Shown here: positions 1,008-2,631 of the stretch, one piece after another
Position numbering within the stretch: the stretch's first letter is position 1
How the letters are laid out: every line of letters begins with the position of its first letter
DNA from: Vibrio cyclitrophicus
Lineage (GTDB): Bacteria; Pseudomonadota; Gammaproteobacteria; Enterobacterales; Vibrionaceae
Direction of reading: 5' to 3'
Assembly: GCF_024347435.1 (NCBI RefSeq)
Contig: NZ_AP025480.1
Coordinates: 2,108,001-2,172,000, forward strand
Length of the DNA stretch: 64,000 bases
Notes under the pieces: model-generated
Seen by the model: the letters and a program-made list of their open reading frames with translations, nothing else
The model's database searches: none
What the model was told of the DNA's origin: nothing
Translations under genes and position numbers: made by a program

Positions 1008-2631
1008 CTAAGCCAGTTTAAACTTACCGACTAATGCTTCGAGCTCAGCAACCTTAGCGTTCAGGCCTGAAGTGTTTTCAGAACTGCGCGTCGCTAGCTG
1101 CAAGGATTGCTCAGATATATCACTGATTGCCGTAATGTCCGCTGCAATTTCTTTGGTTACAGCTGTCTGCTCTTCTGCTGCAGTAGCAATAGAGTTGACC
1201 ATGCTTTGTACGTTACCAGCGCCGCTAACAATCGCTTCCAATGCTGAAACCGCACCTGAACTTTTCTCTACGCCAATCTCAACTAACCGACAGTTATCCT
1301 GCGTGTAAGTAACGGCTTCTTGCGTACCAGATTGAATTGATTGAATAATGCCCGACACTTCTTGTGTCGCTTTGGTTGTTCTCTCTGCCAACGCTCTCAC
1401 TTCATCAGCAACTACAGCAAACCCACGCCCAAACTCGCCAGCACGCGCAGCCTCAATCGCAGCATTCAGAGCTAATAAGTTGGTTTGCCCAGCAATGTCC
1501 TCAATCACTTTAATAACGCTACCAATCTGCTCACCATGTGAACCGAGCGTATTCATTTGCACCGACATATCACTCATTTGAGCCGACACTTGCTCGATAC
1601 TCGCAACCATTTCGACGATGACATTACGGCCATCTTCAGCCGAAGTTTCTGAACGACGTGCTTCTTCATAAGTCGAAGTGCCCTGCTGTGCTACCTCAGA
1701 AATAGTTAAGCTTAGTTCTTCAGCCGCTGTCGCTATCAGGTTTGCTTTGTCCGCTTGAGCAGATGCGCCAGAAACGATGTCTTGGCTAATTGACGACAAC
1801 TCGCCTGTCACTGATTGGACTTGGTGAGTCACCGAAGAGATAGAACCTAGAAGGTCAACCAGCGATTTCTGCATCTGATTAATTGACTTAGCTAGGTCGG
1901 CTAACTCATCACCTGACTCATCAACAATATCCCCAGTAGTAAGGTCGCCATTTGCTACGCGTCGTGCCACTTGTTCAACGCGAGTTAAGCGGTTGGTAAT
2001 CGAACTAGACAATACAAATGCAATCACACCACCAAATACCATCGCAAAGGCAGACAGTAACATGATGGTTTGTTCAATAGTGGTAAACGAATCCGTCAAG
2101 GTAAGCAGTGATTGTTCCGTATCTGCACGCTCACTTGCCGATGCCTGATCAAGTAAGTTTTCAATGGGGATAAGGTTCTTTTCATACAAGGCTCTAAGCT
2201 GTTGGATATTGGATATTGGATAACAGCGCAGCCTCATTATTGATCTTAGGTACGAGTTTCGATTCAAACTCATGAGTAAAACGTCCCATCAGCTCTTCTA
2301 TTCTCTGAATACGGCGATGGTCTTCAGATCCTCGACTCTCCAAACGTTTTGCTTGTTCGATTGCTTGAGTAAATTCGTTCTTGTTGGTTCGATAATCATT
2401 GAGTGCATTATCGACCAGAGTGATTGCACCCAGAGCATCTCGATAGACATCTCCAGCTTCATCGATCAAAACAAGGTAGGTAACGGTACCCGGTACATCA
2501 TCTAATCTAATCTCATCGGCGCTCTTATGAGCGCCAATCACTTCCATCCATACAATACCGACTAACGTGACAAGCACCGCCAATATAGAGCCAAAACCGG
2601 CATACAGTTTCTTTCTCACTGACAATTTCAA
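1008..2631 (-). pseudogene. Methyl-accepting chemotaxis protein, frameshifted by a 7 bp repeat
   Basis: Transmembrane chemoreceptor broken into two frames. The N-terminal part (2631 to stop at 2194) has a first membrane segment at about residues 10-30 and a short periplasmic sensor region. The remainder, read in the next frame to 1008, has a second membrane segment, a HAMP domain and a long MA signalling domain with the conserved hairpin tip (IEDIAGQTNLLALNAAIEAARAGE). The frames part at three tandem TTGGATA copies (2202-2222). Taking out one copy joins the halves as NEAALLSNIQQLRALYEKN and gives exactly 539 codons. Everything else is intact, so the lesion is either recent or reversible. The ligand cannot be told from sequence. 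As written, the cell makes only a 145-residue stub. Confidence 0.9.
2202..2222. repeat. Three perfect tandem copies of TTGGATA in a coding region
   Basis: Copies at 2202-2208, 2209-2215 and 2216-2222. The unit is 7 bp, so each gain or loss shifts the frame. Two or five copies would keep the chemoreceptor in frame; three do not. Confidence 0.95.

What the first reader, a model, noticed from the sequence alone, without database searches (positions are those of the whole stretch)
2202..2222. Seven-bp triplicate repeat that switches a chemoreceptor out of frame
Three perfect TTGGATA copies sit where the two halves of an otherwise intact chemoreceptor change frame. Removing one copy joins them as NEAALLSNIQQLRALYEKN and yields exactly 539 codons. 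Copy-number slippage could turn the receptor on (2 or 5 copies) or off (3 or 4), a contingency-locus arrangement rarely described for chemotaxis receptors. A one-off mutation or a sequencing slip are the simpler alternatives.
Basis: seen in the sequence. Interest (0 to 1): 0.75.

Follow-up and report, generated by a model that had tools for sequence, protein, structure and literature searches.

The report
Chemoreceptor gene broken by 7-base duplication
A marine Vibrio carries one of its many chemoreceptor genes split in two by an extra 7-base repeat unit, most likely a recent one-off copying slip and not a built-in on/off switch.

Summary
TTGGATA stands three times in perfect tandem at 2202-2222, and the two halves of a methyl-accepting chemotaxis protein change frame there. 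The contingency-locus reading is not supported. In 29 of 29 other Vibrio genomes aligned across this place (the 29 best of 59 with a match) the gene is 7 bases shorter, and none has two perfect copies. Of 80 other genus genomes with a close C-half relative, 79 have one uninterrupted frame and one has an unrelated in-frame stop. Both halves still show low dN/dS, so the lesion looks young. It is the only broken gene of 44 conserved genes tested in the window. None of the 35 other receptor-type matches in the genome lies in a gene with such an array inside it. Best reading: a recent 7-bp tandem duplication by slippage inactivated a dispensable receptor; rare reversion is possible, as for any short tandem duplication. 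No raw reads or same-species strains were available, so mixing within a culture is untested. In passing: this genome lacks rpoS and the 3' end of mutS at an IS66-type junction.

The parts
2202..2222 (+). three perfect tandem copies of TTGGATA (on the coding strand TATCCAA); one unit more than the same stretch in relatives
   Evidence: alignment to 29 of 29 genomes, each 7 bases shorter
2194..2631 (-). N-half of the receptor: first membrane helix region and most of the periplasmic part, 145 aa, ended by TAG just after the array; start codon TTG where 27 of 34 named relatives have GTG
   Evidence: relatives; weak CHASE3 match below the curated cut-off; start codons
1008..2201 (-). C-half of the receptor in another frame: second membrane helix, HAMP and MCP signalling domain (the ORF itself opens at 2273)
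   Evidence: PF00672 1.6e-10 and PF00015 5.7e-44; 96% identity to full-length 538-aa proteins

Best explanation
A recent, single 7-bp tandem duplication inside a chemoreceptor gene of a Vibrio splendidus-clade strain. In relatives the place codes for a conserved Leu-Ser/Ala-Asn-Ile-Gln-Gln stretch whose DNA is at most an imperfect two-unit repeat (shown). In the line leading to this strain the two units probably became identical by ordinary substitutions (inferred), and one slippage event added a third unit (inferred), which shifts the frame and ends translation a few codons later (shown). The result is a membrane-anchored fragment without signalling domain and an unread C-half, so the receptor is off (inferred). 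The loss is tolerable because the genome has about 35 further receptor-type genes (shown count, inferred redundancy). A short tandem array can lose or gain a unit again at low rate, but nothing shows that this is selected or used as a switch.
For: Array and frame change. 29 of 29 spanning genomes 7 bases shorter, 0 with two perfect copies (alignments); 34 of 34 named loci examined have no two-copy run in the first 600 bases. 79 of 80 other genus genomes with a C-half relative have an uninterrupted frame of at least 537 aa. dN/dS of the halves kept apart is low: 0.039-0.118 for the N-half (one of ten comparisons saturated) and 0.016-0.033 for the C-half. The gene is the only one broken of 44 conserved genes in the window. 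36 MCP-signal matches over the cut-off in the genome, this gene and one 66-aa fragment included. Other species break the same gene elsewhere: L010 by in-frame stops, L028 by a frameshift, G105 by a TAG (by its sequence the same strain as L010). Three-copy short repeats are known slippage hot spots: CTGG x3 in lacI (PMC3485313, passages) and the 6-bp x3 repeat in mutL (PMC2955026, passages).
Against: No reads, no second strain of the species: copy number within a culture or species is unknown. Window-versus-relative dN/dS in the C-half (up to 0.033) is slightly above the six control pairs (0.010-0.024), and the window carries 11 residues not seen in ten relatives, against 0-7 in nine of those relatives and 28 in the tenth; with the weaker-looking TTG start this hints at relaxed selection for longer than 'very recent'. 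Heptamer triplicates are not unique in the genome (2 in 464 kb).
Confidence: 0.82

Rival explanations
1. Contingency locus: the array is maintained and its copy number switches the receptor on and off within populations.
For: Unit length not a multiple of three, inside the coding frame, rest of the gene conserved. Slippage at three-copy repeats is documented in lacI and mutL.
Against: Array absent in all 29 genomes and 11 named loci spanning the place; only three copies; no ≥3-copy array (unit 4-12) inside any of the 35 other receptor genes (the frames of 30 were located, the stretches of the other five hold no array at all). The longest arrays in the 464-kb sample lie outside ORFs of 100 aa or more or touch only an end.
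Confidence: 0.06
2. Assembly or sequencing artefact, or a mutation that arose in the sequenced culture only.
For: Only one assembly (G000, 3 contigs). A database fragment with the same N-half residues ends before the array (P0123), so the third unit is seen in no second source.
Against: A perfect extra 7-base unit is not a typical single-base read error (general knowledge). The window shows no other broken gene of 44 tested, so the assembly is not error-rich here.
Confidence: 0.1
3. Mutator background: the strain lost mismatch repair (mutS 3' end missing), and the chemoreceptor frameshift is one of many resulting slips. Compatible with the best explanation as its cause.
For: MutS matches only positions 1-729 of 840 and is followed by IS66-type transposase ORFs; 36 of 40 other genus genomes match to 839 or 840 in one frame. 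No further mutS piece in 40 kb around.
Against: Only 1 of 44 conserved genes in the window is broken. Loops of seven bases are, from general knowledge, poor substrates of MutS, so loss of mutS need not raise this event. Whether the truncated MutS works was not tested.
Confidence: 0.12
4. The split gene still works: the C-half is made by re-initiation near the break, or the ribosome shifts frame on the array.
For: The two ORFs overlap by 80 bases and the C-half has in-frame ATG/GTG/TTG codons. Both halves stay conserved.
Against: No relative has such an arrangement; I saw no ribosome-binding site in front of a C-half start (by eye). The conservation is equally expected of a young lesion.
Confidence: 0.03

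Closest known systems
lacI CTGG x3 frameshift hot spot
   Same: three perfect short tandem units inside a coding sequence; gain or loss of one unit shifts the frame (PMC3485313, passages)
   Different: there the three-copy state is the working allele and indels break it; unit of 4 bases; rates measured. Here the three-copy state is the broken one and no rate is known
mutL 6-bp x3 repeat of Salmonella and E. coli
   Same: three short units; copy-number change by slipped-strand mispairing alters function; proposed as a switch (PMC2955026, passages)
   Different: unit of 6 keeps the frame; array shared by related species, whereas here no relative has it
Phase-variable contingency genes with heptanucleotide or homopolymer tracts (Haemophilus, Helicobacter)
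   Same: repeat in a reading frame; Helicobacter bizzozeronii table lists a methyl-accepting chemotaxis protein gene with a C9 tract as putatively phase-variable (PMC3234257, passages)
   Different: those tracts passed repeat thresholds (hepta units more than 3 in that paper's methods), which this array does not meet
Pseudogenised chemoreceptors of Vibrionaceae
   Same: single lesion in an otherwise readable receptor gene; a methyl-accepting chemotaxis gene is named among Aliivibrio salmonicida pseudogenes (PMC2627896, passages)
   Different: the lesion type here is a tandem duplication

Membership tests
Methyl-accepting chemotaxis protein (MCP) | MCP signalling domain and HAMP | tested here: met
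   PF00015 150.4 bits, PF00672 41.6 bits in the C-half, both over the curated cut-offs
Methyl-accepting chemotaxis protein (MCP) | one continuous frame joining sensor and signalling parts | tested here: not met
   frames change at the array; 145-aa and 421-aa ORFs. Hence a broken MCP gene
Contingency (phase-variable) locus | repeat tract in or before the gene whose length changes the reading frame or expression | tested here: met
   7-bp units in the coding frame at the break
Contingency (phase-variable) locus | repeat tract long enough by published screening thresholds (hepta more than 3 units in PMC3234257) | tested here: not met
   three units; threshold read
Contingency (phase-variable) locus | tract kept, with varying copy number, among relatives | tested here: not met
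   absent in 29 of 29 genomes and 11 of 11 named loci spanning the place; one genome per species only
Contingency (phase-variable) locus | mixed copy numbers within a culture at high rate | not testable with these tools
   no reads held
Pseudogene by slippage duplication | extra unit relative to uninterrupted orthologues, rest of the gene readable | tested here: met
   halves open and conserved

The most novel reading that the evidence does not exclude
The heptamer array is a young, genuinely reversible switch that arose in a strain which also lost rpoS and part of mutS, so that receptor-on and receptor-off cells coexist in its cultures.
Probability: 0.06. Interest if true: 0.55.

Novelty: new member of a known kind. 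Interest (0 to 1): 0.17.

Why it matters
As read here it is an ordinary example of how a short tandem duplication silences one receptor in a species rich in receptors. If copy numbers did vary within cultures, it would be a simple, countable system for on/off chemotaxis in a marine bacterium. The probable loss of rpoS and of MutS function in the same genome matters to anyone who uses this assembly as a species reference.

Tried and rejected
Same-species strains: the one genome-contig scan, genus searches and a viral contigs pattern scan (no match) gave no second genome of this species at this place; the closest named locus is Vibrio crassostreae 9ZC13 at 90.9% over about 6.6 kb. Protein database: clusters at 90% identity hide single strains; with the N-half, 5 proteins were found. 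P0123 agrees with the window N-half over about its first 117 residues and then ends in six unrelated residues that look like sequencing-adapter translation (recalled), so it says nothing about copy number.

Species name through the 134-kb contig C3: no match above 90% in the plasmid collection. Left open.

The heptamer elsewhere: TATCCAATATCCAA occurs in 18 of 227 genus genomes, own included, but by coordinates never at the orthologous gene of another genome. Control patterns read backwards also occur in several genomes.

Controls: relatives A and B each showed 3 of 46 conserved genes as broken; by position several lie at the ends of the pieces I fetched or differ at the start. I did not check each; one, a transporter in L196 read as two ORFs, may be a real split.

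Paper searches on chemoreceptor phase variation, on heptanucleotide repeats and on this clade's chemoreceptor pseudogenes listed no paper whose title or abstract start describes a heptamer-switched chemoreceptor in Vibrio. These are listings of an open-licence library only.

Full report
What is there. On the minus strand it lies in a methyl-accepting chemotaxis protein gene. The N-half (145 aa) runs from 2631 to a TAG ending at 2194, the C-half with HAMP and MCP signalling domain is open to 1008 in another frame. A triplicate heptamer is more than chance: 2 in 464 kb of this genome against 0.0 on average in 20 Markov sequences, while two-copy heptamers are at the chance level. Duplication by slippage makes such arrays, so the excess by itself says little about function.

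Comparison with relatives. The window lies in a 5.28-Mb genome of three contigs, close to but not the same as Vibrio crassostreae 9ZC13 (90.9% over about 6.6 kb). In one search, 59 other genus genomes of 226 matched the DNA around the place; loci were held for the best 29. All 29 span the array and are 7 bases shorter there, and none has two perfect copies; the same holds for the 11 of 12 named loci L001-L012 that span it (these sets overlap). Of 34 named loci with the gene (of 39 found; the other five, distant metagenome-assembled genomes, were not examined), 32 are uninterrupted with 537-541 aa, L010 has in-frame stops and L028 a frameshift near the conserved signalling core. In one search, 80 other genomes of 226 carry a close C-half relative: 79 in one frame of at least 537 aa, one (G105) with an in-frame TAG. 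A pair of database proteins of 113 and 424 aa comes from contigs of the same length (P0127, P0063) and looks like another split orthologue (inference from lengths and ends). So the receptor is usually intact and is now and then lost at unrelated sites.

Age of the lesion. With the halves kept apart, window against ten relatives gives dN/dS of 0.039-0.118 in the N-half (one comparison saturated) and 0.016-0.033 in the C-half; six pairs of intact relatives give 0.024-0.072 and 0.010-0.024. The window allele has 11 residues not seen in the ten relatives; nine of these have 0-7 such residues, the more distant L011 has 28. Its start codon is TTG where 27 of 34 relatives have GTG and 4 ATG; in three the match begins after the start. 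The gene has thus been under selection for most of its history; a mild relaxation before or after the duplication is possible.

Background in this genome. There are 36 MCP-signal matches over the family cut-off, this gene and a 66-aa fragment included. In the stretches around the 35 others no array of three or more units of 4-12 bases lies inside a receptor gene; 30 of their frames were located by motif, and the stretches of the remaining five hold no array at all. Arrays near three receptor genes lie in front of the reading frame. In the window, 44 genes conserved between two syntenic relatives were tested and only this one is broken; the same test gave 3 of 46 and 3 of 46 in the relatives, several of them effects of piece ends and not checked singly.

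Mechanism. Relatives have at most an imperfect two-unit repeat here, for instance L074. Substitutions that made two units identical would seed slippage, and one added unit shifts the frame. Three-unit repeats are known hot spots: CTGG in lacI (PMC3485313, passages) and a 6-bp unit in mutL (PMC2955026, passages). Shown: array, shift, absence in relatives. Inferred: order of events, loss of function, tolerance of the loss. Not tested: rate, mixing within a culture.

A wider finding. The mutS gene of this genome matches the MutS model only to position 729 of 840, MutS domain V only to 137 of 188, and is followed by two ORFs of IS66 type (PF03050, DUF6444). On the other side stands a shortened LysM-domain ORF in the place where, from recall, nlpD lies. 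rpoS, which lies next to mutS in G011, is missing: the best match in G000 is 283.7 bits in a 619-aa frame, below the cut-off of 378.7, whereas 12 of 12 other genus genomes of that search pass it. A tyrosine-type integrase gene lies directly upstream of mutS, as in the mobile elements at the HTPMMQQ motif described for Vibrio splendidus 12B01 (PMC5296598; abstract and two results sections read); a displaced host start of mutS was not seen in 20 kb. The strain may therefore be a mutator. This need not explain the present lesion: the window shows no load of broken genes, and seven-base loops are thought to escape MutS (recalled).

Verdict. Real feature, ordinary kind: a strain-specific frameshift by tandem duplication in a dispensable chemoreceptor. 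The switch reading is possible but has no positive support.

Noticed in passing
L179 1-3941 (G000 C1:521000-524940), L187 14655-15074: mutS lacks its 3' end, rpoS is missing from the genome and a LysM (nlpD-like) ORF is shortened; IS66-type transposase ORFs sit at the junction. Probable mutator and rpoS-null strain.
   Followed up: partly
L179 4085-5359: Tyrosine-type integrase gene directly upstream of mutS, resembling the mutS-site mobile elements of PMC5296598.
   Followed up: partly
G001, G010, G025, G038: Four of 40 other genus genomes have mutS in two pieces in different frames or places.
   Followed up: no
L157 4046-4081; L176 1354-1379; L159 423-464: Arrays of 8-, 5- and 8-base units (4.5, 5.2 and 5.25 copies) about 100, 210 and 820 bases in front of three receptor ORFs.
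   Followed up: no
L131 11535-11597; L137 7993-8028: Long arrays TTAGCTTC x7.9 between genes and AGATTCG x5.1 touching the end of a 504-aa ORF.
   Followed up: no
   Followed up: partly
L010, L028: The same receptor gene is broken in Vibrio chagasii LC2-408 (in-frame stops) and Vibrio aestivus CAIM 1861 (frameshift).
   Followed up: partly
   Followed up: no
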